Below are positions 1 to 32,069 of a DNA stretch of 32,069 nt, piece after piece. Both the position numbers and the translations under genes were made by a program. The notes under the pieces are model-generated. The model was given only the letters and a program-made list of their open reading frames with translations, did not search any database and was not told where the DNA came from. This DNA comes from Endomicrobiia bacterium. GTDB taxonomy: Bacteria > Elusimicrobiota > Endomicrobiia > Endomicrobiales > Endomicrobiaceae. Positions within the stretch are counted from its first letter, which is position 1, and every line of letters begins with the position of its first letter. The stretch spans positions 1-32,069 of the forward strand of contig WRNH01000017.1 in NCBI GenBank assembly GCA_009776745.1, in the 5' to 3' direction.

Positions 1-3000
1 TGCGTTACCGGCGGGTATCATACAAAAGGGCTGACAGATCTGCTTTCTTCTAAAAATATTTCGTATGCCGTGCTGACACCCAATATTTCAGACGGAGGCG
101 ACATTGGGGCGATTCACAAAAATTATGAAAATACGGCTCTTGAACAGTCGGGAATTTTATCGGAGGGATTGCAGCTGACTTTATTTTCTCAAATATTGAA
201 CGGCGAAGCGGGTCCCGAATTTATGCAATTTGCGGCAAAACTTTTTGCTTCGGCGGCAAAAACTCTTGAAAATATGCCGTATTCCGAAGCAAAAGTAGAA
301 GAATTGCTGCAATATATGAACGAAGCCGTAGGCGAAAATTATAAATTTGAGCGCGATATAAAGTTTCCGGAAAAGATTACTCTGAAATCCGCAGACGGCA
401 GATATTCTGAAAATTTTATCGAAATATACGGCAGAAAAGGAAAAATATCCGTAAAAAATATCTATGCGCGCAATACCGCAGACAAGGTTTTTCTTAAAGA
501 TTCGGGTAAACTTCTTTCAGGCAAAGAAACAGCTGGATTTCTGGAAAATTTCACAAAAACTTTAAATATTGCGTCTTTGGATTTCGGCGCCGGAGTTTTT
601 GTGCCGAAAATATATCCGGCGGCTGAATCCGTTTTTGACTGGGCGGCGAAAAAAGGACTGTATATCAATATAGATGAAATAAACGGGATCGATTTTGACG
701 CCGAGCTTTACGGGCTGTCGGATATTTTGCTTTCTGAAAATCCGGATACGGCGAAACTTCCAACCGACCTGCAAAAAGCAAAAGTACGCAGTTATATAAA
801 AGCCGAAAAATATAAGGGTAATGCTTTTTATGCCGCCGGCTTATTGAATGAAATGCTGTTTTTGGATGAGGAAACATTGGCGCGGAGAATTGTGCTCGCT
901 GATGAAAGGATAGAAAAAGGATATTTGGATGATATTGTCCCTGCGTTTAAAAATTTTCTTGGCATAAACAGCGATGAGGATTTTGAGGAGTTTAAGAAAA
1001 AGGCAGCCGCAAGCTCTGTATTTCATGAAAACGAAAAAATAAGAGATGTCTTGAAACAGCTTGGATTTGCAGGTGTGAAAAGCGGGAAAATTAAAGCAAT
1101 AGAAGAATTTACTCCTAATGAAAAACTTTTAATATTTGAATGGTTTATCGGTAATAGTAAAGATAGTAAAGCTTCCGTGGTAGAGAGTCCTGTTATTACG
1201 GCGGCGGCAGCAAAACTTCGTGCGAAAATTGCAGAAGAGAAGAAAAAAGAAGAAGAGAAGGATAAAAAAATTGAGGCGGCAGATGAGATTGCTGAAAAAA
1301 GCGAAGCTCAAAATCTGTTTGAAGAAGAAGTTGAGAGAATAATGAAAAATAAAGGCAAATATACAGAAGGCGTAGATTATGTGCAATCGGATGACGGAGA
1401 GATTTTGCCGATAGGTGAAAAATTTATGGGAAAACTCAGAAGCGCTGTTAATTTTGCTACTAAGCCGGGTACGGCAGTATTTTATTCCAGACTTAAAGAT
1501 GCTGCGGCAAAGTATGCCAATAAGAATAAAAAACAAACTTTAGAAATGACTGATGACGGAAAATATTTTGACAGCCTTAAAATATGGGATAAATTCGGCG
1601 AGAAGGCTTCTCATATTTACTGGGATATGTTTTCCGAAAAATTTGCCGAGCAGGCAACCGGCGAAGTAACTCTGTTTTTGAACAATCCGGCGCAAACCAG
1701 CGTGTACATAATCAGAGAATGGCCAAGCATTCATCTTAACGATAATATTTCTAAAATCGTGATCAGGGATTACGGAAGAATTATAGGGAGCGATTACGGC
1801 GCTGTCGCGCTTGGAGAAGAATTTTTTGAAAAAGACGGATTTATGCCGGATATATTGCTGTCGGGAATTCTGGCTCGAAGCGGCAAAACACCTTCGGAAA
1901 TACTTAGCGAGGTATATTCTAAAGTCGGATATGTTCCGAGCATGGAAGAAAGTACGATTGAGTTTGCGGACAGGGAAGAAAGAGAGAATGCGGAGAAAAA
2001 TCTTTTTGATCTTTCGGAACCCGGCATAAACGAGCTTATTGATTTTGAGGCTCTCGGATTTGATGCCGGAACCGGAGCGTCTGGAATACAAATTATAGGA
2101 GATATGGATTTATATGAATACAGGCTGCGTAAAGGGATAAAAATAACTATAAACGACAGTGCGTGGATTGTTATAAGACAAGCTCCAGCTGAAAACGCGC
2201 TGCAGATATATGTCGAAACAGACAGTAAGTTAAAAACAAAAAATCTTTCGGATAAAATAAATTCCATGCTTAAAGACGGTTTCAGGCTTGACCGGACGGC
2301 AAGCCAAAGCAGCCGGAAAACCAAATGGTATGATCTTGCGTTGATTTCTGAGCTTATAAATTTCGGAAAAATACAAGACTTACTGAAATATACCGGTAAA
2401 AAAGCTGTCGATGTTGAATACAGATATATTAACGGTTTGGAGAATTATATAAATGCGTACAAAAAAACAGGCAGGCAGGATTTAAAAAAATCGAACCGCC
2501 TTGAAGTTTTGATAATAAATCAAATGCCCGAAAATCCTGAAAACCTAGGCTTTAAAAATACCGGTTTAAAAGTTAACGGTTCAATCGTATGGGAAAGTCT
2601 GACAACGGGCACTCTTGTAATGTATGCCCGCAATGCCGACGCTAACGATATCGCGAAAGCCGCGACCGACATAATGCCCGTGGTCTTGAAAAGAGAAACA
2701 GGCTCTTCGGAATTCTCGGCAGTAGCCGTTGACGAAAGAAGAGAGCATACAAAAGCTTTTAAATATCTTGATAACGGCATGCTTGTCATGACAAAGAGAT
2801 TTTATGACGAAACGTTCAGATTTTACAAAAACAGTCCGGAAGCTGCGGCAGAGAAAATAATAAACGAACAAAAAGCCGAAAAAGCGGCTTTCGGCAGAAA
2901 TTTCATTATGGATTTAAGCCGCATTAAACGCGATAAAATGCAAAAAGCCTTAGAAGCTTACAATAAGTCCGGAAACCGTCAGATAGCTTTACCTTTGGAT

Positions 3001-4011
3001 TATTTTGAAGGAAAGACCGAAGCGGAAATAAGTTCATTCGTTTCGGAGATGTCTAAAAACGGCACAAGGGTTTTTGCTGTTATAGACGAAAACTCTTCTT
3101 TGAATGAATTTGATTCTGAAAGATTAAAGACGGCTTTGCTGAAGTATAATTTTTCAGGGTTTTTGCTGAAGAAGGACGATAAAATAATTTCTTTCAGAGA
3201 TTACTTTTCAGAATCTGAAAACAAAGTTTCAGAAATAAATGATTTCGCGGATGAAAATGAACTTGTAAATAAAATAAATTCATCCGATGAAGATTCCGTA
3301 AAAGTTATAGACATTGAAAATTATGTTTCCCTTGCTGACGGAGGGATAAGAGATATATCCGAAAGAATCGATAGTTTTGTAGGTTTGTTCGGGGACAAAA
3401 TATTGAAATTTTTTAACGGAAACATATCGCGCGACGCAGCTGTTAAAACAGCGCTTGCTTTTGATATGCCGGTTGTTCCTGATAATGTAAATGAGCGCGC
3501 TCTTGCCAATATAATGGATAACGAACCTTCAAAAGCCGTCAATGAGCGTCTTGCCGGCATGTTAAAAGTAAATGAGATCCCTGAGTTTAAAATTTACCTT
3601 AAAAGGATCGATGAAAATGCCGCCAATGATGAAGAGAGAATAAAATTGAAATACGCTTTTCTTTCGACGATCGCTAAAAAAGCCAAAGTTAAAGCGGATT
3701 TAAAAGACAGACAATTCCCTGCAGGGTTCGATACTAAAGAGCTTGAAGAACTTATGATTTTGAGCGCTTTATCGAAAAGAGCAGCAGATAACAGATTTAT
3801 ATCCGAGCTTTATGAAGCCGAATCTGCTGAATCGCGGTATGCCGCGGTCAAAACATTGGCAGCAGGGCTGAACATGACTGAAGGCGAAGCTGCCGCGGCA
3901 ACGATTTATCAGTTGATTCTTGCTTTCAGTGAACAAAGAACAGGTATCAGGTCTGTGCCTTCCGAAACAATTAGCATAGAAAGCGTATCGCAGATATTGA
4001 AAGCCGCATAA
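1..4011 (+). CDS. Giant protein of unknown function, 5' end cut by window edge
   Basis: The reading frame is open from base 1 without a stop, so the first start-like codon inside the window (GTG at 70) is very unlikely to be the true start. The visible part has 1336 codons and ends at TAA 4009-4011. The first residues read TGGYHTKGLTDLL and then ISYAVLTPNIS, an alpha/beta-looking segment that I associate, from memory and without a search, with giant proteins of Elusimicrobia and Omnitrophica. A Lys/Glu-rich probable coiled coil lies near nt 1210-1350. The rest is mixed alpha/beta with no catalytic motif I can name, and the C-terminal 250 residues are mostly helical. No membrane segment is obvious in the visible part. 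The next gene is 286 bp downstream behind its own promoter, so this is probably the end of a transcription unit. Function unknown. Confidence 0.85.
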   Translation, partial: CVTGGYHTKGLTDLLSSKNISYAVLTPNISDGGDIGAIHKNYENTALEQSGILSEGLQLTLFSQILNGEAGPEFMQFAAKLFASAAKTLENMPYSEAKVEELLQYMNEAVGENYKFERDIKFPEKITLKSADGRYSENFIEIYGRKGKISVKNIYARNTADKVFLKDSGKLLSGKETAGFLENFTKTLNIASLDFGAGVFVPKIYPAAESVFDWAAKKGLYINIDEINGIDFDAELYGLSDILLSENPDTAKLPTDLQKAKVRSYIKAEKYKGNAFYAAGLLNEMLFLDEETLARRIVLADERIEKGYLDDIVPAFKNFLGINSDEDFEEFKKKAAASSVFHENEKIRDVLKQLGFAGVKSGKIKAIEEFTPNEKLLIFEWFIGNSKDSKASVVESPVITAAAAKLRAKIAEEKKKEEEKDKKIEAADEIAEKSEAQNLFEEEVERIMKNKGKYTEGVDYVQSDDGEILPIGEKFMGKLRSAVNFATKPGTAVFYSRLKDAAAKYANKNKKQTLEMTDDGKYFDSLKIWDKFGEKASHIYWDMFSEKFAEQATGEVTLFLNNPAQTSVYIIREWPSIHLNDNISKIVIRDYGRIIGSDYGAVALGEEFFEKDGFMPDILLSGILARSGKTPSEILSEVYSKVGYVPSMEESTIEFADREERENAEKNLFDLSEPGINELIDFEALGFDAGTGASGIQIIGDMDLYEYRLRKGIKITINDSAWIVIRQAPAENALQIYVETDSKLKTKNLSDKINSMLKDGFRLDRTASQSSRKTKWYDLALISELINFGKIQDLLKYTGKKAVDVEYRYINGLENYINAYKKTGRQDLKKSNRLEVLIINQMPENPENLGFKNTGLKVNGSIVWESLTTGTLVMYARNADANDIAKAATDIMPVVLKRETGSSEFSAVAVDERREHTKAFKYLDNGMLVMTKRFYDETFRFYKNSPEAAAEKIINEQKAEKAAFGRNFIMDLSRIKRDKMQKALEAYNKSGNRQIALPLDYFEGKTEAEISSFVSEMSKNGTRVFAVIDENSSLNEFDSERLKTALLKYNFSGFLLKKDDKIISFRDYFSESENKVSEINDFADENELVNKINSSDEDSVKVIDIENYVSLADGGIRDISERIDSFVGLFGDKILKFFNGNISRDAAVKTALAFDMPVVPDNVNERALANIMDNEPSKAVNERLAGMLKVNEIPEFKIYLKRIDENAANDEERIKLKYAFLSTIAKKAKVKADLKDRQFPAGFDTKELEELMILSALSKRAADNRFISELYEAESAESRYAAVKTLAAGLNMTEGEAAAATIYQLILAFSEQRTGIRSVPSETISIESVSQILKAA

Positions 4012-4297: not shown

Positions 4298-5341
4298 ATG
4301 AAGATAAATTTTTCAGAAATTATAAGGTCGTTAAAAGACAGCTTTAAAGTAAGACATTACAAGCGCATACCTATAAAAAAGGTATTGTTCAGAGTTACTG
4401 AAGAAGATATTGAGCAGTATTTTGAAAGCAGCAAACGCTTGTTTTTGTACTCAAATAAATGGGTGGAATCTGCAGACGGTGTTGTTGCTGCGGGAAGATG
4501 GGTATATGTAAATATTGATGTTTTTGATCCAAACGGCGATATAGTTCCTAAATTGTCAGAAAGAAATGTCAGAGTTGAACCTAAGCAGAGACTTTATGAA
4601 TATGATTACAGTCCGCTTAGAGGGGCAAAGAAAGGCGATATAATTGAGTATAAGCAGGGATTTCCTAAACCTTTTTATCAGGAGCGAGTTGAGGGAAAAG
4701 AAGCGACATTAAGGGTGGAAATTCTTAAAGTTGAAGAGAATGAACCATTGCCATGGGTTGAAAGTGATTATTTAGAATATCATAGAGTCAAGGATTTAGA
4801 AGAGGATAAAGATCTTATAAGACGTATTCTTGAATCACGCGATGAAAAACGCAGCGAAGAGTCTGTCAAACAGCAAATAAGAAAGTATTTGTTGGAAAAA
4901 AATAAATTTAAAGTTCCGCAAGATATAGTAAATTTAACAAAAAAAGAATTGATAGCTTTTTTCAGAGGCCATCTTAACTGCAAATACTGTACCCCTGCAT
5001 ATGTTGAAGAGCAAGTCAGCTTAAATATGAATAAATTTGAGATACAGGCTGAAGAACTCGTAAGGTATTTGTGCATATACGAAATTATCTGCGGCAAAGA
5101 GAACATACTTGTAAGCAAAGAAGAAATTGAATCTGACGCAAGTGCTCTGATAGGAAGATTAAGAACAATAGACGAAGATCTTAGAGCATATGAATACGGT
5201 TTTATACCTGCGTTAGAAAAGTTTTATTTAAAATCTTTAAAGGATGAAAAGTTTACGAATTACCGAGCCGAAAAAAAGAAAGGATTCTATAAGTTTCTTA
5301 TAGAAAATGCGGCAATAACCGAAGAAATAAGAGATAAATAA
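4298..5341 (+). CDS. Trigger factor paralog lacking the ribosome-binding domain
   Basis: The 347-residue product aligns collinearly with the second and third domains of the full trigger factor at 6119-7444. Shared landmarks are IPIKK near residue 24, the KNKF-VP block near 201-207 matching KNKFDVP, and the C-terminal KFLIENAAITEEI matching KFLLDNANIKEEV. It begins where the PPIase-like domain begins. The whole N-terminal ribosome-docking domain, with its GFRxGxxP signature, is absent. What remains is a divergent PPIase-like domain and a SurA-like C-terminal chaperone domain. A C-x2-C pair (Cys228, Cys231) sits where the full protein has a short loop. It has no signal peptide, so it should be cytosolic. 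ATG 4298 follows a usable ggag (4289-4292). The long intact frame and its own promoter argue for a working gene rather than debris. Likely role: ribosome-independent holdase or a specialised chaperone (inference). Confidence 0.85.
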   Translation: MKINFSEIIRSLKDSFKVRHYKRIPIKKVLFRVTEEDIEQYFESSKRLFLYSNKWVESADGVVAAGRWVYVNIDVFDPNGDIVPKLSERNVRVEPKQRLYEYDYSPLRGAKKGDIIEYKQGFPKPFYQERVEGKEATLRVEILKVEENEPLPWVESDYLEYHRVKDLEEDKDLIRRILESRDEKRSEESVKQQIRKYLLEKNKFKVPQDIVNLTKKELIAFFRGHLNCKYCTPAYVEEQVSLNMNKFEIQAEELVRYLCIYEIICGKENILVSKEEIESDASALIGRLRTIDEDLRAYEYGFIPALEKFYLKSLKDEKFTNYRAEKKKGFYKFLIENAAITEEIRDK

Positions 5342-5901: not shown

Positions 5902-6050
5902 ATTGGGTTTCTCTAAAAACCCAATTTTGTCATACCCGTGAAAACGGGTATCCACGCTGCTTTTAAATATGTCCGACGATAACGACAAAAATGGATTCCC
6001 GTTTTCACGGGAGTGACGTCACTGTAGATAGGTTTTTAGAGAGACCCAAT
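5902..6050. repeat. Terminal-inverted-repeat element, copy B, with REP core
   Basis: The left end attgggtttctctaaaaacc (5902-5921) and the reverse complement of the right end (6031-6050) agree at 19 of 20 bases. The core holds two facing copies of the REP motif (cccgtgaaaacggg near 5935 and cccgttttcacggg near 5998). It lies between tRNA-Leu and tig, and abuts a heptamer-type repeat on its right. Confidence 0.8.
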
Positions 6051-21770: not shown

Positions 21771-24700
21771 ATGAAAAAGATTTTATTGTTATCATTGTTT
21801 TTGTTATTGTTTTGTGCTCCTTGGGCAGTCGGAGTGGATGTCTCTGATTGGACTGCATTTACTAGTGTTTTCACTAGTACAATTAATTACGATGGCAGCA
21901 GTAGTTCTAATACAATCAATTTAACTACTAGTACTATCATGCTTAATGGTACTAGTTCTTGGTTGGGCGGTACTGCCTCTAATGTTAAGACTATTAATGG
22001 CTTATTTAACGGTAATAAAAGTGCGTTAGATGGTTCTGGAAATGTAAATTCTGGTTTAGTGGTTTATAATAGAACTCCAGATGATCATAGAATTTTAAAT
22101 ATTAATGATCTTATTGTAAAGAATATGAGATATTCATATGGCGCAATTTATTTGTATTCATTGAATACGAATTCAAGTAATATCACCTTAAATTTATATA
22201 ATGTTGATTTTGATAATAACAATAGAGCAATTAATACCAATATGGGGGGTACTAATAGATCAATTGTAATAAATGCCAGTGGAACAATTGTATTTTCAAA
22301 TAATAATTTTAATGGAAGCGGCGGTGCAATGAATTTAGTTTATAGAACAACAACTACTTTCGAAAATAGCACCACAACATTTACCGGAAATAGCGCTAGC
22401 GGAAACGGCGGGGCAATATCCGTTACTGGCAGCAATACTGATGGCAATACTTTCTTAAATTTTACAGGCAGCAGTGTAACATTTACAGAAAATAGAGCCA
22501 CAGGGGTAAGCAGTTTAGGAGGAGCAATATATATTGCAGGAGGCACAGGCGGTACTCCCGGTAATCGTACTTCTTTTTTAAATTTCACAAACAGCAGCGT
22601 AATTTTTTCAGTTAACAGCAGCAACAGTAATGGCGGGGCATTATATTTAGCCGACAGAACATCTGCTGCTTTTACAAACAGCAGCATTGCTTTTACTGAA
22701 AATGTAACTGCAAACGGTTCCGGCGGAGCAATATACATTACCGGCAGCAACTCTCTTTTAGATTTCATAAACAGCAATGCAGCTTTTTCAGATAATAGGG
22801 CTAGCGTCGGTGGAGGGGCTATTGAACTGCAATCCGGCAGCATTGTTAATTTTTCAGGCAGTACAGTAACATTCAATAATAATATTGCTGCCGGAAATGC
22901 GGCAGGAGCGCTTCATGTTATGCAATCAATAGTTAATGTTGCAAACAGTTCAATGTCATTTAACAATAATAATGCGCGCGACAATGGTGGAGCAATAGAT
23001 GCATGGCAAACTTCATATATGAGTGTTCATAATAGTTATCTGGAATTTAATAACAATATTTCTTCAGCGGTACCAGTTGGGGGGCAAGGAGGCGGGGCTA
23101 TATTCATTGGTAATGGGACGAGAGCTATTTTTAATGAAGTAGAGGCTCATTTTTCTGTTAATAGCTCTAGCAGATCAGGCGGAGCAATATATGTCGGAGG
23201 GACAGCCTACAGCACAATGACATTTACCGACTCAACTTTAATATTTAACGGAAATGTTGCTGCAAGTTCCGGCGGCGCGATTTATATAGGGAATTATTCA
23301 ACGGTAACATTTAATAATTCGGCTGTATCATTTTTGTCAAATAATGCCCAAAATAATGATGGCGGGGCTATATATATTACCGCCACCAGCATTAACGATA
23401 GATCTTACTTAAATTTTATAGACAGTACAGCAACGTTTTCATCCAATACCGCTTCAGCTTCTGGCGGCGCCATGTACTTGGCTAGTTATACAAATACTAC
23501 TTTTACAAACAGTTTCGCTACCTTTATCGGAAATAAAGCCGAAAGCGGTAGCGGCGGCGCCATATATGCTGGCGGAGGGACAAACTACAGCACAATGACA
23601 TTTACCGATTCAACTTTGACATTCAGAGAAAATATTGCTGCAAGTTCCGGTGGAGCGGTATTTTTAGATCCACGAGGGAATATGACTTTTAGAAATACGA
23701 ATATTGAGGCAATAGGAAATATATCTCAGACCGGTTCCGGCGGATTTTTATACGCCAGCGCCACAACAGCTGTGTCAGGAACTGTTTTTAACGGTTCAGT
23801 GAATGTTTCCGGTAACCGCGCCGCCCTGTATGGCGGAGGGATATATACGGAAAGAAGTTTGACTTTCAACGGAGACGTAGAGCTTACAGGCAATACCGCC
23901 CAACGCGGCGGAGCAATATATGCAACAGGCGGTTCTACGATAACTTTTTCCGGTTTGTCTACTACAATTAATTATAATGAATCCAAGTTAGATGCAGCTG
24001 AAGGAAACGGCGTAATTTATATGAACGGGACATCAATTGTACGGTTTCTTGATACTTATCTCAGGGCTATAGGTAATGAGGCCTATAATGGTGGATTTTT
24101 ATATCTTAACAATAACGGAAACACCGATTTTACAAGAAACGTAAATCTGTCTAACAATAAAGCAAGAGTATCAGGCGGAGCTTTGTATGTTACAGGAACA
24201 TGGATCGGAGCCGGAACAAGAACAACTGTTTTAAACTTTAACGGCATTGATGTCAACATGTCCGGCAATACAGCAAATGTTTTCGGAGGAGCAGTATACG
24301 CTACCAGCAGCAATTCGGCTTTGAATTTTAACGGCAGTAATGTGACATTTTCAAGTAATACGGCTAATGAGGGGGGAGCTATATATGCAGTATCAGGAAC
24401 GACATTGGCTTTTACCGAAAGTTCAGTAAGCTTTAATCATAATAAAGCAGATACTGGCGGAGCGATATTTATTAACAGTAACAGTTCTTCTCTGTCTTTT
24501 ACAAACAGTGTTGTTACATTTACGAATAATACAGCTGCAGGCTCTGGGGGCGGGGCAATATTTTTGGGCGGCGGTAGTATAAATTTCACAGGTTCGGCCG
24601 TAACTGCAGTAGGGAATAAGGCAGAAAACGGATTCGGAGGATTTTTATATTCAATATCCGTTGCTGTTTTCGGAAATGTTACGATTACGAGCAATACGGC

Positions 24701-27700
24701 AAATTCCGGCGGAGCAATATATGCCGATAACAGTTTCTCCAATTTGAATTTTTCAGGGAATTTGACAACTTTTAATTATAATACGGCAACAAGCTCCGGC
24801 GGAGCAATATATGCTGACGACGATTCAAGATTGAACTTTACAGGAAGTTCAACAATCTTTAATAATAATCGGGCAACAAGTTCCGGCGGTGCAATATTTG
24901 CTAGTAGTGCGAATATAAATTTCACCAACATTGTAACATTTACAAGCAATACGGCAAGTTCCGGCGGAGCGATATATGCAAGTTCCGGCACGGCGCTTAC
25001 ATTTAGCGGAAGTTCAACAAAGTTTAATTATAATTCCGCAACCGGCACAAATAGCGGCGGTGCATTGTATATAATCGGTACGTCCGTAACTTTTGACGGC
25101 GGGTTTGTGTGGTTTACAGGCAATAATTCAGCCGGAAGCGGCGGAGCAATATATTCTAAATCTTCAACATTGAATTTTAGAAGCAGTTCTACACACTTTA
25201 CAGATAATTATGCCTTTAATGGCGGAGCAATATATTTGAACGGCGGAAATATAGATTTTTCAAGTACAAGTTTAACGGCAGCAGAAAACACGGCGAATCA
25301 TTTCGGCGGTTTTTTACATGCAGAAAATGCGGGAGTGATATTCGGCGAAGTTGAAATGACAGGCAATATGGCAAATCACGGCGGAGCAATATATGCGGAT
25401 GGCAATACGACACTTACATTTTCAAGTGTAACAGCATTTAATAATAATAGTGCGAGCGGAAACGGCGGAGCGATATATGCGGTTAACAACACGACGCTTA
25501 CATTTAACGGCAGTTCAACAATATTCCAAAATAACAGAGCCGGAGACGGCGGAGCCGTATATGTTGCTAACGGCGGTTTTGCGGAATTTTATAATGCTTC
25601 ATTTACGAATAATTCATCCGAAGGAAAAGGCGGAGCCGTATATGTGGAAAGTTTGAGCAATGTGATTTCAGTCGTTCATTTTTACAGTAATAATTCAAAT
25701 GGCACGGTATTTGAAAATAATACAGCCGCAAATGCAGACAGCGGTAACGGACTGTATGCCGGAAGAAACAGCAAAATTTATTTTATTACCGACTTCGGCG
25801 CTTCCGTAGAAATGCGCGATTCAATAGCAGGCAGCGCTGATAATGCAAAGATATTTATTGGAGGAGCTGGAGATTTCAATTTATACGCGAATTCTTTAAA
25901 TAATCATGCGAATATTTATTTATCAGGCGGGAATTTTAATTTTAAGGACGGCGCAAGTTTTAGCGCCGGACTATTTGAGTACAGTACGGGTACAATTTTA
26001 AATATGCAAGACGGGCAGCAAAATAAACTCTATGTTAAAGATCTTAAAGCCGACGGAACATTGAAAATGGACTTGATCAGCGGCGACGCAGGCGATAAAA
26101 TATGTGTTGACGGTACGGCAACTTTGGGCAGTTCTTCGGAACTTATCACAAATATATCCAATATGAATTTCAGAAAACAAATATTTACATTAATTAATTA
26201 TTCCGTTTTATTGGAAAGTTTTAGCGCTTATGACGTTATTAATATTTCAAGCGGAGTATCCGTTTCCAGCTACAGCCTGCAATATGACTATCTGCTCGAG
26301 GATAAAAACTGGATAGCTCTTACGGTTTACGGCGATAATTTGCAAACCAATTTCTCCAAACTGGAAGGCATTACGTTCAATCAAAAACAGACAGCCGGAG
26401 TATACGACGTACTTTCGGCGGATTCAGCCGGAGATTTGGATTATATAATATCTAAAATAGAAGGTTTGGAAGAAAAGGGGCAGCGCAGGGCGCTTTCGCA
26501 GGCGGCGGGATATTTTATAGCGAATGTGATAAGGAGCGGCGGAGCGGACGGAGGAAGCAATGAAATATATGACAGAATAAAAAACAGCGACGGAATGATA
26601 AGAAGCAAAGATTTATGGCTGCAGGCTAAAGTTAACGTAATAATGAATCAAGGCGATGAAAATTCGATAAATGATTATACGGATACCGCTATAGGCGTAT
26701 CAGCGGGATATGACATATTTACGGCGGAACCGGATATTATGTTCGGCATATTCGGAAAAATCAATAAACATAATGTATCGCAGGATCCGAATAATACGGC
26801 GGATGTCACAAATACAGGTTTAGGATTATACGGCGGGATCATAAAGGACAAATGGGAAGTAAAAGGGCTTTTATCCGGAAGTTTGGATTCATACAGCACG
26901 GAAAGATATATTGAATTTGCGCATCGTGAAGCGAGCTCCGAGTTTAAAGGCATGACATTAAACGCGGACATAGAAGGAGCCGGAAAAAAGCCGATAAACG
27001 ACATAACCGATTTTAGATATTACGCGGGAATGGAAATAAGGAATTCAAGTTATGACGGAATAAATGAAAGCGGAGCGGAAAGCCTGAATTTGATAGTTTC
27101 AAGAAACAGTTACAAAAGGGTTGCGGCGAGGTTAGGAGCAGGAGTCAATCAAGAAAGAGAAAAATATGCATGGCATGTAAGGGGCGAGTATAAATATTTG
27201 CTGGACGGAGATCTGCCTGAGATAGAAAGTAAGTTTGAAGGAACGGGGAGCAGTTTTAAAACAAGAGGTTCGAAGGAAGGAAAAGGCGCGGCGGGAGTGC
27301 GGGCAGGAGGAGTAGTAAATGTAACTCCGGATATAAAATTGTTTGCGAACGCGAGTTTTTATACAGCGGACAGATATCGTAATATTTACGCAAATGCAGG
27401 AATCAGATATACGCTGTCATCCGTATATAATGAAATGATAGTTCAAAACATAGAAGCCAAAGAAAAAGCCAGAAAAGAAAGAAAACGGATCAATGCGGAA
27501 ACCGCAGTTTATGAAAAAACAAGAAGAATTAGAGAACGTGAAAAAAGAAGAATCGAAAAAGAAGAGGAAAAAGAAAGAATAAAAGCAGAGAAAGAAAAAG
27601 CTGCAGCAGCAGCGGCATTGTCTTTAACTGTTCCGTTACATCAGGATATTCGCGCTAACGATGCGCATACTCAGCCGGAAAAAAGAAGAACGGACGCAAA

Positions 27701-28241
27701 GATCATGGAATATGAAATAATGCTTGCCGCAGAGAGGAAAACGGAAGATGCGCTGATAATAGCCGAACGGCAAAAAGCGAAAGAGGAGATCAGAAAAAAG
27801 CAGGAAGAGCAGGCAAGGCACACTGAGGAAAGAAGAAAAAGAGTTTCTGCTGAGATCAGCGATGAAGATCTGATGAAAAAGAAAAAAGAAATACAGGGAA
27901 GAATGCTTAAGCCGATACTTGAATCGTTTGAACTAAGATTTATGTCCGGAAAGCATGAGTTATCGCCGCATTGGATGATAGAGCTGAAAAAGCAGGCGGA
28001 AGCGATAAAAAAATACGAATACAAAAAAATATCCATAGAAGGACATGCGGACACTTTCGAGAATACGCCCAAAAAACTGTCAAGGTTAAGAGCCAAGACG
28101 GTGTATGATGAATTTGTAAACAGCGGAATATCCGCCGAAAAAATAGAATATGTAGGAGTTTCGTCGGTATTGCCTGCCGCTTCAAATGACACCGAAGCCG
28201 GAAGAATGGCAAACAGAAGAGTGGTTGTGGTGGTGGAATAA
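21771..28241 (+). CDS. Giant Pmp-like autotransporter adhesin with OmpA/Pal C-terminal domain
   Basis: The 2156-residue product is a predicted surface protein. A signal peptide (MKKILLLSLFLLLFCAPWAVG) leads into a beta-helix passenger with about 37 repeats of the GGA(I/L/V)Y type alternating with F-x-N/FxxS strands (about residues 180-1290), as in chlamydial Pmp proteins. A spacer to about 1600 follows. An autotransporter-like barrel runs from LWLQAKVNV (about 1614) to NAGIRYTL (about 1880). Then come about 155 highly charged helical residues, interrupted by an Ala-rich piece. The end is an OmpA-like domain (about 2045-2156): EGHAD, LSRLRAKTVYDEFVNSGI and NRRVVVVV. Barrels usually end the protein, so this periplasmic extension to peptidoglycan is unusual. 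I chose ATG 21771 after aagga (21760-21764) over the in-frame TTG 21753. Confidence 0.9.
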   Translation: MKKILLLSLFLLLFCAPWAVGVDVSDWTAFTSVFTSTINYDGSSSSNTINLTTSTIMLNGTSSWLGGTASNVKTINGLFNGNKSALDGSGNVNSGLVVYNRTPDDHRILNINDLIVKNMRYSYGAIYLYSLNTNSSNITLNLYNVDFDNNNRAINTNMGGTNRSIVINASGTIVFSNNNFNGSGGAMNLVYRTTTTFENSTTTFTGNSASGNGGAISVTGSNTDGNTFLNFTGSSVTFTENRATGVSSLGGAIYIAGGTGGTPGNRTSFLNFTNSSVIFSVNSSNSNGGALYLADRTSAAFTNSSIAFTENVTANGSGGAIYITGSNSLLDFINSNAAFSDNRASVGGGAIELQSGSIVNFSGSTVTFNNNIAAGNAAGALHVMQSIVNVANSSMSFNNNNARDNGGAIDAWQTSYMSVHNSYLEFNNNISSAVPVGGQGGGAIFIGNGTRAIFNEVEAHFSVNSSSRSGGAIYVGGTAYSTMTFTDSTLIFNGNVAASSGGAIYIGNYSTVTFNNSAVSFLSNNAQNNDGGAIYITATSINDRSYLNFIDSTATFSSNTASASGGAMYLASYTNTTFTNSFATFIGNKAESGSGGAIYAGGGTNYSTMTFTDSTLTFRENIAASSGGAVFLDPRGNMTFRNTNIEAIGNISQTGSGGFLYASATTAVSGTVFNGSVNVSGNRAALYGGGIYTERSLTFNGDVELTGNTAQRGGAIYATGGSTITFSGLSTTINYNESKLDAAEGNGVIYMNGTSIVRFLDTYLRAIGNEAYNGGFLYLNNNGNTDFTRNVNLSNNKARVSGGALYVTGTWIGAGTRTTVLNFNGIDVNMSGNTANVFGGAVYATSSNSALNFNGSNVTFSSNTANEGGAIYAVSGTTLAFTESSVSFNHNKADTGGAIFINSNSSSLSFTNSVVTFTNNTAAGSGGGAIFLGGGSINFTGSAVTAVGNKAENGFGGFLYSISVAVFGNVTITSNTANSGGAIYADNSFSNLNFSGNLTTFNYNTATSSGGAIYADDDSRLNFTGSSTIFNNNRATSSGGAIFASSANINFTNIVTFTSNTASSGGAIYASSGTALTFSGSSTKFNYNSATGTNSGGALYIIGTSVTFDGGFVWFTGNNSAGSGGAIYSKSSTLNFRSSSTHFTDNYAFNGGAIYLNGGNIDFSSTSLTAAENTANHFGGFLHAENAGVIFGEVEMTGNMANHGGAIYADGNTTLTFSSVTAFNNNSASGNGGAIYAVNNTTLTFNGSSTIFQNNRAGDGGAVYVANGGFAEFYNASFTNNSSEGKGGAVYVESLSNVISVVHFYSNNSNGTVFENNTAANADSGNGLYAGRNSKIYFITDFGASVEMRDSIAGSADNAKIFIGGAGDFNLYANSLNNHANIYLSGGNFNFKDGASFSAGLFEYSTGTILNMQDGQQNKLYVKDLKADGTLKMDLISGDAGDKICVDGTATLGSSSELITNISNMNFRKQIFTLINYSVLLESFSAYDVINISSGVSVSSYSLQYDYLLEDKNWIALTVYGDNLQTNFSKLEGITFNQKQTAGVYDVLSADSAGDLDYIISKIEGLEEKGQRRALSQAAGYFIANVIRSGGADGGSNEIYDRIKNSDGMIRSKDLWLQAKVNVIMNQGDENSINDYTDTAIGVSAGYDIFTAEPDIMFGIFGKINKHNVSQDPNNTADVTNTGLGLYGGIIKDKWEVKGLLSGSLDSYSTERYIEFAHREASSEFKGMTLNADIEGAGKKPINDITDFRYYAGMEIRNSSYDGINESGAESLNLIVSRNSYKRVAARLGAGVNQEREKYAWHVRGEYKYLLDGDLPEIESKFEGTGSSFKTRGSKEGKGAAGVRAGGVVNVTPDIKLFANASFYTADRYRNIYANAGIRYTLSSVYNEMIVQNIEAKEKARKERKRINAETAVYEKTRRIREREKRRIEKEEEKERIKAEKEKAAAAAALSLTVPLHQDIRANDAHTQPEKRRTDAKIMEYEIMLAAERKTEDALIIAERQKAKEEIRKKQEEQARHTEERRKRVSAEISDEDLMKKKKEIQGRMLKPILESFELRFMSGKHELSPHWMIELKKQAEAIKKYEYKKISIEGHADTFENTPKKLSRLRAKTVYDEFVNSGISAEKIEYVGVSSVLPAASNDTEAGRMANRRVVVVVE
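22318..25646 (+). repeat. Coding tandem repeats of the beta-helix passenger
   Basis: The DNA repeats the string tccggcggagcaatatatgc with small changes many times, for example near 24707, 24797, 24959 and 25463, each coding SGGAIYA. Units are about 75-110 bases and out of register in exact sequence, but always in frame. A longer in-frame repeat joins 23207 and 23585 (offset 378 bases, 126 codons). The reverse strand shows matching spurious frames rich in YIAPP, which is GGAIY read backwards. Confidence 0.8.
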
Positions 28242-28339: not shown

Positions 28340-28484
28340 ATTGGACGTCTCTAAAAACCATGTCTACGCCATGTCATTCCCGTGAAAACGGGAATCCATG
28401 TTTGCCATTGTCGTCGAGAAAAAAGCAATGTGGATTCCCGTTTTCACGGGAATGACAAACAGGTATTTTTTAGAGACACCCAAT
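28340..28484. repeat. Terminal-inverted-repeat element, copy C, with REP core
   Basis: The left end attggacgtctctaaaaacc (28340-28359) faces a right end of the same family (about 28463-28484). The core contains two facing copies of the REP motif: gtcattcccgtgaaaacggg at 28373-28392 and its reverse complement at about 28437-28456. It gives spurious peptides such as WIPVFTGMT. It lies between the two giant adhesin genes. Confidence 0.8.
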
Positions 28485-28673: not shown

Positions 28674-28820
28674 ATCGGATGTCTCTAAAAATCCAGTCCG
28701 CGCTGTGTTATTCCGATAAAAATCGAAATACATTTTTGTCGCTGCCGCAGGACAAATCCAAAAAAACGCAGATACCTGCTTTTGCCGGTATGACAAACTG
28801 AGTTTTTAGAGCAATCCGAT
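28674..28820. repeat. Terminal-inverted-repeat element, copy D, degenerate core
   Basis: Left atcggatgtctctaaaaatc (28674-28693) and the reverse complement of the right end (28801-28820) agree at 17 of 20 bases. The core is a decayed REP pair (ttattccgataaaaatcg near 28709 and cttttgccggtatgaca near 28780). As with copy A, it lies directly downstream of a promoter and upstream of a gene. Confidence 0.65.
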
Positions 28821-28865: not shown

Positions 28866-31800
28866 ATGAAAAAAATCTTATTTCTATCGCTATTTTTGTT
28901 GTTGTTTTGCTTGGCTAAGGTTGGGGCGCAGCAAAATGCTGGGAATTATAATGACTTTAAAACTTATTTTGAAAATAGTAGTAACAATACAATCAATATA
29001 ACCAGTGATTTTATATTTGGTAATAATGGTACTCCTACTTGGGGTACAAACTCTTCTGCTACCTATAAAACTATTAACGGGGGAAGTCATATATTAACAG
29101 GGAATGGCACTTCATCATATATAGAAGTAACTAACACAACTACATCATATACAAATAAATCTCTAATAATTAATGATATTACAATACAAAATATGTTATC
29201 TATGTATGGGGCAATTTATTTACATTCGAGCTATGATCAACCAGACGCTGATATTACTTTAAATTTATACAATGTTAATTTTTATAATAATAATAGAGCA
29301 ATTACTACTTTTTTTAATGGTGATAATAATAGTAGATCAATCGTAATAATTGCCAGCGGAACTAATGTCTTTTCAAATAATAACTTTAACCCTAGTTACT
29401 CACCCGGTGGCGGAGCTATGTATTTAATTGACAGAACAGCTACTACTTTTATGGATAGTAATACGACTTTTACGGGAAATCAAATAACAAACGGTTCCGG
29501 CGGAGCGATATATATTACAGGAGCTAATGCTTCTTTAACTTTTTCAAACGGTGTAGTAGAATTTATAAATAATACGGCAAGCAGTAACGGCGGAGCGATA
29601 TACAACAACGACAGAAGTAAAATAAGTTTTGAAAATAACACATCTGTTTTCACAAACAACAGTGCAGGAAATGCCTGCGGAGCAGTGCTTAATGATAATA
29701 GGGCAATAATAACAATTACAAGCTCTACAATGACTTTCAACAATAATAGCTCAAATAATACCGGAGCAGTGCTTAACCAGTTTAGAGCAGAAATAACAGT
29801 TACAAGCTCTACAGTGATTTTCAACAGTAATAGTTCAAATATTTTCGGCGGCGCGATAAATAACGGAAATAATTCAAGAATTTCATTTACGGAAAGCACT
29901 GTAACTTTCCACAGTAATAGGGCAAATAATTCCGGCGGTGCAATATTCAATGATAGTAATTCAGGAATAACATTCACAAGCGCTACAGTGATATTCAGCA
30001 GCAATACGGCATCTTCTGGCGGTGCAATATACAATACCGGTAATGCAAATATTTCATTTACTGGTAGTGCGGTAACATTCAGTAGCAATACAGCGGGAAC
30101 TGATGGCGGAGCGATATACATTACAAACCTTGCTTCTTTTTTAAATTTTTCAAATTCAATCGTGGATTTTATCGGAAATCGAGCAAGCGGTATCGGCGGT
30201 GCGATATATATTACAGGAGCTAATTCTTCTTTAACTTTTTCAAGCGGTGTAGCAACATTTATAAGCAATACTGCATATAATGTTGCAGTTAGTGTTGTAA
30301 ATAATGGCGGGGCTATATATGCCACAGACGGTTCAAATGTGACTTTTGAGAATGGAAATTTAGCAATATTTAACTATAACAGGGCAAGCAGCGGCGGGGC
30401 AATGTATGTAGACGCCGCAACTGCTACTTTTACAAATAGTATAGCGACTTTTACAGAAAATCGAGCTATAAACGGTTCCGGCGGGGCATTGTATATAAAT
30501 ATCGCAACTGCTGCTTTTATAAATAGTATATCGACTTTTACCGGAAATCAAGCTAGTAGTTACGGCTTCGGCGGAGCGATATATATTCTAGGTGATACCG
30601 ACAGGTCTTATTTAAGTTTTATAGACAGTACAGCTACATTTACAGATAATATGGCGGGTCAAAATGGCGGAGCAATATATACTACAGGCAGTAATTCTTT
30701 TGTAAATTTCTCAAACAGCGTTGTGACATTTACAAACAATGCAGCCGGCTCCGGCGGAGCGATATACAATTATCAGAATTCAACAATTTCATTTACTGGC
30801 AGTAGTATAACTTTCAGTGGCAATACGGCATCTTCCTCTTTCGGAGGAGCGATATACAATGGTTCTTCTTCAACAATTTCATTTACCGACAGTAGTATAA
30901 TTTTCAGTGGCAATACGGCAGATAGTAATAATGGTGGCGCGATATACAATATGAATGCTTCAACAGTAACATTTACTAATACTAATGCAATATTCAGCGG
31001 CAATACGGCATTTTCCGGAGGAGCGATATACAATAATACAAATTCGTTATTAAAAATATCAGGCGAAGGAGCTTTTATAGGAAACAAAGCAACGGCAACA
31101 AACGGAAACGGCGGAGCGATATACAATGCTGGACTTTTAGAGTTATCGGCAGACAGCGGAAAGAGCATATCGTTTACGGGAAACAGCGCCGGCTGGCAGG
31201 GAAATGACATATATAATACTGCTCAGGGAACGATAACGATAACTGGAGTCGGAACGGTAACGATAAGCAGCGGAATAAGCGGATTTGGCTTGATAGAAAA
31301 GAGCGCAGGAATATTTAATATAAACGGAAACAGTTCAGAATATACGGGAGTATTCACGCAGACAGGCGGAAATACGATAGTAACAAACAATACTTTTGCA
31401 GGCGTACATAATCTCAGCAACGGAAGCGTATTTGAGTTGGCAACGGGCGCAGCAATGAGCGCGGGCGCGCATTATGCATTAGACAATGCAACGATGACAA
31501 TAAGCGCGGACAATGATTTAGCATTTGGCGGACAAATAAATGGAACAGGTTGGATAAACAAAACCGGCGCCGGGGATATGCATTTTATGTCCGGAGCGGA
31601 CATAAATTTTGATGGAAGATTTGATTTGGCCGGCGGGAACGTACATTTTTCAACAAGCGCAAAAATAAGCAGTATGGAAATAGAAGCGGCGGGAACGCTG
31701 ACTTTAGATGTGGATTTTATCGGTTCGCTTACAAGCGTGCTGTATTTTGAAGATATCACGATAAACACGGCAAGTAAGTTGCATATTAATTATATCGGTA

Positions 31801-32069
31801 CACCTCCTGCCGCGGGTGCTGAGGTAACAATCTTTTACTCAAATATTGAAAATGGTGAATTTAGCGGTAATAATATAGCAGACGGCAGTTCCGGAAATTA
31901 TACTTTTGAATGGAAAACTTCAAATATTTCCGGATATCAGTATATGGGACTTTTGACATATAACGGTCCTTTAGTTTTAGGCCCGTGGAATAATTTTGTC
32001 AGCGAGTACAAAACAGCGTCGGGAACTACAATACTTTTATCGACAAGTATAACGGCTGGGGCGATTCTC
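28866..32069 (+). CDS. Second giant Pmp-like adhesin, 3' end cut by window edge
   Basis: I translated 1068 codons with no stop before the window ends. The signal peptide (MKKILFLSLFLLLFCLAKVGA) is nearly that of the first adhesin. The next 180 residues align with it too (for example ITLNLYNVNFYNNNRAI with ITLNLYNVDFDNNNRAI). About 20 GGAIY-type repeats span nt 29410-31130, often followed by Asn (GGAIYN), unlike the first protein. A region without such repeats follows (about residues 760-1035). At nt 31990 the sequence WNNFVSEYK resembles the N-terminal module again, so a second passenger module may begin. ATG 28866 follows aaagg (28853-28857); an in-frame ATG at 28833 is possible but would spoil the signal peptide. 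The barrel or anchor, if any, lies outside the window. Confidence 0.88.
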   Translation, partial: MKKILFLSLFLLLFCLAKVGAQQNAGNYNDFKTYFENSSNNTINITSDFIFGNNGTPTWGTNSSATYKTINGGSHILTGNGTSSYIEVTNTTTSYTNKSLIINDITIQNMLSMYGAIYLHSSYDQPDADITLNLYNVNFYNNNRAITTFFNGDNNSRSIVIIASGTNVFSNNNFNPSYSPGGGAMYLIDRTATTFMDSNTTFTGNQITNGSGGAIYITGANASLTFSNGVVEFINNTASSNGGAIYNNDRSKISFENNTSVFTNNSAGNACGAVLNDNRAIITITSSTMTFNNNSSNNTGAVLNQFRAEITVTSSTVIFNSNSSNIFGGAINNGNNSRISFTESTVTFHSNRANNSGGAIFNDSNSGITFTSATVIFSSNTASSGGAIYNTGNANISFTGSAVTFSSNTAGTDGGAIYITNLASFLNFSNSIVDFIGNRASGIGGAIYITGANSSLTFSSGVATFISNTAYNVAVSVVNNGGAIYATDGSNVTFENGNLAIFNYNRASSGGAMYVDAATATFTNSIATFTENRAINGSGGALYINIATAAFINSISTFTGNQASSYGFGGAIYILGDTDRSYLSFIDSTATFTDNMAGQNGGAIYTTGSNSFVNFSNSVVTFTNNAAGSGGAIYNYQNSTISFTGSSITFSGNTASSSFGGAIYNGSSSTISFTDSSIIFSGNTADSNNGGAIYNMNASTVTFTNTNAIFSGNTAFSGGAIYNNTNSLLKISGEGAFIGNKATATNGNGGAIYNAGLLELSADSGKSISFTGNSAGWQGNDIYNTAQGTITITGVGTVTISSGISGFGLIEKSAGIFNINGNSSEYTGVFTQTGGNTIVTNNTFAGVHNLSNGSVFELATGAAMSAGAHYALDNATMTISADNDLAFGGQINGTGWINKTGAGDMHFMSGADINFDGRFDLAGGNVHFSTSAKISSMEIEAAGTLTLDVDFIGSLTSVLYFEDITINTASKLHINYIGTPPAAGAEVTIFYSNIENGEFSGNNIADGSSGNYTFEWKTSNISGYQYMGLLTYNGPLVLGPWNNFVSEYKTASGTTILLSTSITAGAIL

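What the first reader, a model, noticed from the sequence alone, without database searches (positions are those of the whole stretch)
21771..28241. Autotransporter-type adhesin continued into a periplasmic coiled coil and OmpA/Pal domain
The sequence shows, in order, signal peptide, about 37 Pmp-like GGA(I/L/V) repeats, an outer-membrane-barrel-like segment (about 1614-1880), about 155 charged helical residues, and an OmpA-like peptidoglycan-binding domain (GHAD, LSRLRAK, NRRV). Type V autotransporters usually stop at the barrel, whose last strand is the assembly signal. Here the barrel would be internal, and one polypeptide would join the outside surface to the cell wall. That would be a surface adhesin with its own peptidoglycan tether, perhaps an assembly variant in which the passenger replaces the small loops of OmpA. 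The combined order is, to my knowledge, not a standard described class.
Basis: partly seen in the sequence, partly recalled or inferred. Interest (0 to 1): 0.78.

Follow-up and report, generated by a model that had tools for sequence, protein, structure and literature searches.

The report
Surface adhesin with built-in wall anchor
A termite-gut bacterium (Endomicrobium-like, phylum Elusimicrobiota) makes a giant predicted surface adhesin whose chain runs through the outer membrane and ends in a domain that should grip the cell wall; it is one member of a large family whose inner anchors differ from gene to gene and appear to be swapped between genes.

Summary
Window 21771-28241 encodes one intact 2156-residue protein. 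In order it has a signal-peptide-like start, a Chlamydia-Pmp-type repeat passenger (29 strict GGA[ILV] motifs; shuffles give 0.4), a 12-strand autotransporter barrel at residues 1611-1881, E/K/R-rich helices, and an OmpA-type peptidoglycan-binding domain at 2057-2149. The barrel scores E=8e-33 to PF03797 when searched alone, and in the AlphaFold model it matches solved NalP, EspP and EstA barrels. The OmpA fold matches YfiB, OprF and OmpA-peptidoglycan structures and keeps the Asp/Arg pair expected to bind diaminopimelate. So the barrel is internal.

It is not a one-off. Of 128 distinct barrels sampled across Elusimicrobiota, 59 carry an OmpA tail, 49 end at the barrel like ordinary autotransporters, 5 carry a TPR-like tail, 12 other tails, 3 are cut. 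The window's last 132 residues are about 80% identical to a relative whose barrel is only about 40% identical: tail swapping.

The idea that the passenger replaces OmpA loops is wrong: this is an autotransporter barrel. A close analogue is published for trimeric autotransporters (SLH, coil or OmpA tails; Béchon 2020). New variant of a known kind. Adhesion and wall binding are inferred, not shown.

The parts
21771..28241 (+). complete gene, 2156 aa: passenger - internal barrel - helical linker - OmpA domain; a TTG 18 bases upstream is an alternative start
   Evidence: recovered at full length as its own best hit in the genome search
21771..21833 (+). signal-peptide-like N-terminus, residues 1-21
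   Evidence: by eye from the translation; no signal-peptide predictor was available
22407..25712 (+). Pmp-type repeat region (GGA[ILV]/FxxN), residues about 213-1314, expected beta-helix passenger
   Evidence: PF02415 1.4e-61, TIGR01376 1.3e-65, motif counts against shuffles; beta-helix by analogy with PMC11166332, not folded here
26376..26579 (+). helical segment just before the barrel, residues 1536-1603 (alpha-helical linker of autotransporters)
   Evidence: AlphaFold model, five helices
26601..27413 (+). 12-strand autotransporter barrel, residues 1611-1881; last strand reads NAGIRYTL
   Evidence: PF03797 8.1e-33; profile match to NalP 1uyn up to its last residue; AlphaFold; Foldseek EstA, NalP, EspP
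27420..27842 (+). two long E/K/R/A-rich helices, residues 1884-1951 and 1972-2024, periplasmic linker
   Evidence: AlphaFold model with a low-confidence break between them; composition
27843..28238 (+). exchanged tail block, residues 2025-2156 (end of linker plus OmpA domain), about 80% identical to the tail of L030 while the barrels are about 40% identical
27939..28217 (+). OmpA-type peptidoglycan-binding domain (PF00691), residues 2057-2149; Asp2094 and Arg2107 sit at the diaminopimelate-binding positions
   Evidence: (YfiB 4zhw TM 0.88, OprF 5u1h, A. baumannii OmpA with peptide 3td5)
28866..32069 (+). second, tandem member of the family, N-terminal part only (runs off the contig end)
   Evidence: residues 1-208 of the first protein match at 55%

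Best explanation
The gene encodes a monomeric, Pmp-type autotransporter adhesin with its own cell-wall tether. Steps: (1) Sec export. (2) The barrel is built into the outer membrane by BAM, its last strand serving as the assembly signal although it is not at the chain's end, as it is not in OmpA. (3) The Pmp-type beta-helix passenger is moved through or with the barrel to the outside. (4) The chain leaves the barrel on the periplasmic side, runs through charged helices, and the OmpA domain holds peptidoglycan through diaminopimelate, so pull on the passenger is carried to the wall as well as the membrane. Shown by computation: domain order, barrel fold, OmpA fold and its two key residues, and recurrence of the arrangement across the phylum. 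Inferred: secretion, topology, wall binding, adhesion and load bearing. Within the family the part after the barrel is a replaceable module (OmpA, TPR-like, long helices, or nothing), changed many times and at least sometimes by recombination in the linker.
For: Intact frame. Pmp repeats far above chance. PF03797 8.1e-33; NalP matched to its terminal residue. AlphaFold 12 strands then helices then OmpA fold, mean pLDDT 84. Foldseek: EstA 4e-17, NalP TM 0.83 by target, EspP, BrkA; OmpA part YfiB TM 0.88, 1.3 A; OmpA-peptide complex 3td5 TM 0.80. Asp conserved in 57 and Arg in 60 of 60 fused OmpA tails. Family members without a tail end exactly at the barrel, typically with an aromatic last strand, so the barrel boundary is right. 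128 distinct barrels: OmpA 59, none 49, TPR 5, other 12, cut 3, in many genera of two family-level groups, f1 and f15. OmpA label needs 24 changes on the barrel tree, shuffled mean 43. Tail 2025-2156 about 80% identical to L030 against about 40% for the barrel; L008/L015 tails 82% against 36%.
Against: No experiment. pTM is 0.57: the relative placement of barrel and OmpA is not predicted, only each fold. The passenger was not folded. The window's OmpA domain is one of the weaker ones in its genome (54.5 bits) and lacks two residues and the usual Asn of the binding loop. Linker length varies from 11 to 576 residues in the family, so there is no fixed ruler between membrane and wall. About 40% of family members do without any tail, so the tether is dispensable for assembly.
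Confidence: 0.8

Rival explanations
1. The OmpA tail is a leftover or a folding aid, not a working wall tether: it helps assembly or keeps the protein in the periplasm on the way, and binding to peptidoglycan is weak or absent in this protein.
For: The window's domain is shortened in the binding loop and among the weaker scoring ones. In the AtaA-TpgA pair simulations suggest that the periplasmic partner strengthens anchoring even without peptidoglycan coupling (PMC13082670), and loss of TpgA lowers surface AtaA (PMC8151025).
Against: The two binding residues are kept in nearly all fused tails, and the tail block is conserved at about 80% with L030 although the rest is not, which argues for selection on it.
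Confidence: 0.15
2. The protein is a surface coat or immune-like decoy rather than an adhesin: many variable Pmp-type passengers form a changing outer layer, and the tether stabilises the outer membrane.
For: At least 20 barrel-bearing paralogues in a 2.3 Mb genome; 26 OmpA-domain matches in the genome. Cell-surface abundance would give many outer membrane to wall links.
Against: Chlamydial Pmps with the same repeats are described as important in infection, adhesion and immunity (PMC11166332). No direct evidence either way for this organism.
Confidence: 0.25
3. An OmpA protein whose small barrel loops were replaced by a passenger.
For: C-terminal OmpA domain.
Against: The passenger is N-terminal to the whole barrel, not in a loop; the barrel has 12 strands and belongs to PF03797.
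Confidence: 0.01
4. Assembly or gene-calling artefact joining two genes.
For: The contig ends close by and the genome is a 130-contig draft.
Against: Single open frame with no stop and the same order in dozens of other genomes, including genomes of a different family-level group.
Confidence: 0.01

Closest known systems
Trimeric autotransporters with C-terminal SLH, coil or OmpA domains (Veillonella, other Negativicutes, Fusobacteria; OmpA version in Streptobacillus moniliformis), PMC7549365
   Same: Autotransporter whose membrane anchor is internal and followed by a peptidoglycan-binding domain, OmpA PF00691 in eight Streptobacillus genes; different tails in related genes.
   Different: Those are type Vc with a YadA anchor (trimer). 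Here the barrel is the monomeric 12-strand PF03797 type, the passenger is Pmp-type, the phylum is Elusimicrobiota, and a TPR-like tail also occurs.
Chlamydia polymorphic membrane proteins (Pmp), PMC11166332
   Same: FxxN and GGA[ILV] repeats, signal peptide, PF03797-type barrel, large multigene family.
   Different: As described there Pmps end with the barrel; here OmpA follows. The Pmp middle domain was not reported by Pfam in the full-length scan.
Inverse autotransporters with periplasmic peptidoglycan-binding domain (intimin, YeeJ; type Ve), PMC6555100 and PMC5595812
   Same: One chain with periplasmic wall-binding part, barrel and surface adhesin.
   Different: Opposite order: periplasmic domain and barrel are N-terminal, passenger C-terminal.
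AtaA with TpgA (Acinetobacter sp. Tol 5), PMC13082670 and PMC8151025
   Same: Surface adhesin coupled to peptidoglycan through a periplasmic wall-binding protein.
   Different: Two separate proteins and a trimeric adhesin; here one chain.
OmpA / OprF / Pal / YfiB
   Same: C-terminal PF00691 domain, same fold and binding residues.
   Different: No surface passenger; OmpA has an 8-strand barrel of another family (general knowledge), Pal and YfiB are lipoproteins.

Membership tests
Type Va (classical monomeric) autotransporter | 12-strand PF03797 barrel | tested here: met
Type Va (classical monomeric) autotransporter | N-terminal signal peptide and passenger in front of the barrel | tested here: met
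   order read from the translation, Pmp repeats in front of the barrel; signal peptide judged by eye only
Type Va (classical monomeric) autotransporter | barrel at the extreme C-terminus | tested here: not met
   275 residues follow the last strand; 49 tail-less family members do meet it
Type Va (classical monomeric) autotransporter | passenger reaches the cell surface | not testable with these tools
   needs experiment
Chlamydial Pmp | FxxN and GGA[ILV] repeats | tested here: met
Chlamydial Pmp | conserved middle domain (Pmp_M) | tested here: inconclusive
   not reported by the full-length Pfam scan, but that scan also missed the barrel, so absence is weak evidence
OmpA/OprF | C-terminal PF00691 domain with diaminopimelate-binding Asp and Arg | tested here: met
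   (Asp2094, Arg2107)
OmpA/OprF | 8-strand OmpA-type barrel | tested here: not met
   12 strands, PF03797
Trimeric autotransporter with OmpA tail | YadA-type membrane anchor | tested here: not met
   barrel scan gives PF03797, no YadA anchor reported
Inverse autotransporter (type Ve) | barrel N-terminal to the passenger | tested here: not met
   barrel at 1611-1881, after the repeats

The most novel reading that the evidence does not exclude
The Elusimicrobiota family is a combinatorial surface system: one type of monomeric autotransporter barrel is paired with exchangeable periplasmic modules (OmpA, tandem OmpA, TPR-like, long helices, none), and recombination inside the low-complexity linker keeps swapping them between paralogues, so a cell tunes which adhesins are tethered to the wall and which are free in the membrane.
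Probability: 0.45. Interest if true: 0.65.

Novelty: new variant of a known kind. Interest (0 to 1): 0.52.

Why it matters
Autotransporter adhesins are usually thought to be held only by their barrel. This family contains both tethered and untethered versions of the same monomeric barrel, often many in one genome, so it is a natural comparison for two open questions: whether a barrel with a long tail assembles through BAM like one whose last strand ends the chain, and whether surface adhesins need a wall anchor to bear load. It also extends to monomeric autotransporters, and to a phylum with no autotransporter literature that I could find, an idea so far published for trimeric ones.

Tried and rejected
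Passenger in place of OmpA loops: rejected by fold and family. Artefactual fusion: rejected by recurrence. Plasmid-borne relatives: tblastn of barrel plus tail against 72,556 plasmids gave only weak OmpA-domain matches, no fusion. Literature: no paper holding PF03797 and PF00691 together; Elusimicrobi + autotransporter returned two irrelevant papers; large autotransporter surveys PMC3419190 and PMC9289746 do not mention Elusimicrobia or OmpA tails. Phase-variation tracts: no homopolymer of 7 or more G/C or 8 or more A/T lies in the gene. TPR-tail structure folded from one sequence gave only two confident helical stretches. Not done: a survey of other phyla for PF03797 followed by OmpA, since genome contigs allowed one scan and the genome search is centred on this phylum; so restriction of the monomeric version to Elusimicrobiota is not claimed.
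Full report
What is in the window. The window is the whole of contig C17 of a 2.29 Mb, 130-contig draft genome. The named relatives found by sequence are Endomicrobium and other Elusimicrobiota assemblies, many from termite-gut style isolates. Upstream of the finding lie ordinary housekeeping genes: trigger factor, ClpP, ClpX, Lon, phosphoglycerate dehydrogenase, glycosyltransferases, LpxK, a cation efflux protein. LpxK fits an outer-membrane (lipid A) bacterium.

The protein. Translation from ATG 21771 gives 2156 residues without a stop. The start looks like a signal peptide. Residues 213-1314 carry the FxxN and GGA[ILV] motifs of chlamydial Pmps: 29 strict GGA[ILV] against 0.45 expected and 34 FxxN against 13, PF02415 1.4e-61. 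In Chlamydia these repeats were shown by prediction to be coils of a beta-helix (PMC11166332); I infer the same here.

The barrel. A full-length Pfam scan did not report a barrel, but residues 1576-1890 alone match PF03797 at 8.1e-33. A profile of 20 paralogous barrels matches the solved NalP barrel from profile position 98 to 306 of 307 and to NalP's last residue. AlphaFold on residues 1525-2156 with 25 sequences gives mean pLDDT 84. I read twelve strands, 1611-1881, counting the short pair at model residues 293-308 as a hairpin in an outer loop. Foldseek puts EstA, AaaA, NalP, EspP, Hbp and BrkA at the top. With an even strand number both barrel ends face the periplasm.

The tail. Two long charged helices follow, with a low-confidence break between them, then an OmpA fold. 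It matches YfiB 4zhw (TM 0.88 by target length, 1.3 A), OprF 5u1h and the A. baumannii OmpA domain solved with a peptidoglycan peptide, 3td5 (TM 0.80). Asp2094 and Arg2107 fall on the conserved GHxD and LSxxRA positions, which I know as the diaminopimelate-binding pair of OmpA; in 60 fused tails Asp is kept in 57 and Arg in 60. The window's own binding loop is two residues short and lacks the usual Asn, so its strength is open. The pTM of 0.57 means the relative position of barrel and OmpA is not predicted.

The family. The window genome has at least 20 loci with this barrel. At least a dozen have OmpA after it, one of them (L016) two OmpA domains in tandem; three have a TPR-like tail (L010, L012, L014); two end at the barrel (L006, L019). 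In a search of 341 Elusimicrobiota genomes 97 have a match to the barrel profile. Among 128 distinct barrels whose downstream frame I could read, 59 have OmpA, 49 nothing, 5 TPR, 12 other, 3 are cut by contig ends. The sample was drawn by barrel score, so these are not unbiased frequencies. OmpA-tailed members occur in genera of two family-level groups, f1 and f15. Tail-less members end at the position where the tailed ones continue, typically in a G-x-x-Y-x-F/W-like last strand, so the tail is an addition to a canonical barrel.

Tail exchange. On a quick tree of the barrels the OmpA label needs 24 changes (15 forced by well-supported branches) against 43 in shuffles; several changes can be losses. 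Barrel and tail identities are correlated overall (Mantel 0.42, null maximum 0.22) but with clear breaks. The window's tail is 82% identical to that of L030, Candidatus Endomicrobium neocapritermitis, while the barrels are 41% identical. Along the alignment identity is about 0.4 up to residue about 2024 and about 0.8 from 2025 to the end. L008 and L015, both of the window genome, have tails 82% and barrels 36% identical. Contig C51 begins with 126 bases that are 97% identical to the end of the window gene and is followed by gapA and pgk, so another gene of this genome shares this tail end. The simplest reading is recombination or gene conversion in the linker. Strong purifying selection on the tail alone could also raise identity, but would not explain why other tails are only 40-50% identical.

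How it most likely works. Sec export; BAM inserts the barrel using its last strand, which need not be the chain's end, as OmpA itself shows (general knowledge); the passenger folds outside; the tail stays in the periplasm and binds peptidoglycan. Every step after the fold assignments is inference. Linker length ranges from 11 to 576 residues, so the tether is not a fixed ruler.

What is known. A 2020 study of Veillonella autotransporters reports that its trimeric autotransporters carry an SLH or coiled domain after the YadA anchor, and that Streptobacillus moniliformis has eight with an OmpA family domain at the extreme C-terminus (PMC7549365). Intimin-type inverse autotransporters have a periplasmic peptidoglycan-binding domain (PMC6555100), and AtaA binds the separate wall-binding protein TpgA (PMC13082670). 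The present family differs in having the monomeric PF03797 barrel, the Pmp passenger, the phylum, and a wider set of tails. I found no paper describing it, within the open-access library searched.

Verdict. Observation confirmed. Interpretation right in the main, wrong on the OmpA-loop idea, and the class has a published trimeric counterpart. New variant of a known kind; interest moderate, raised by the number of members, the mixture of tethered and untethered versions, and the evidence for tail exchange.

Noticed in passing
window 28350-28480, also 5906-6040; a similar stretch about 28680-28815: A palindromic repeat of about 130 bases (TCTCTAAAAA...TTTTTAGAGA ends) found at about 40 places in the genome at 78-95% identity; looks like a MITE or REP-type element.
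   Followed up: partly
window 28866-32069: A second Pmp-type gene in tandem, same strand, N-terminal 208 residues 55% identical to the first; it runs off the contig.
   Followed up: partly
L010, L012, L014, L025, L029, after the barrel: A TPR-like helical domain of about 270-330 residues replaces OmpA as the tail (weak TPR_2 match 3e-4; two confident helical stretches in a single-sequence model). Function unknown.
   Followed up: partly
L045 after residue 1323 of its 3119-residue frame: Nearly 1800 residues follow the barrel, ending in an OmpA-like sequence that the profile did not score.
   Followed up: no
L007 (G000:C13): A degenerate paralogue: the OmpA tail is broken by stops while the barrel frame is intact.
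   Followed up: no
L028 and L055; L059: Barrel frame ends and an OmpA domain follows in a separate frame downstream; split gene, frameshift or true two-gene arrangement.
   Followed up: no
L048, record titled Christensenellaceae bacterium isolate Roe453_bin112: An autotransporter barrel of this family in a bin named for a single-membrane group; probably a wrongly binned contig.
   Followed up: no
P0001 full length: HMMER scan of the whole repetitive protein missed PF03797, which scores 8e-33 when the barrel is scanned alone; automatic annotation may miss the barrel in such proteins.
   Followed up: yes
window 70-4011: A 1313-residue frame with no convincing family match.
   Followed up: no
window 4298-5341: A second protein with only the trigger-factor C-terminal domain, just upstream of the full trigger factor gene.
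   Followed up: no
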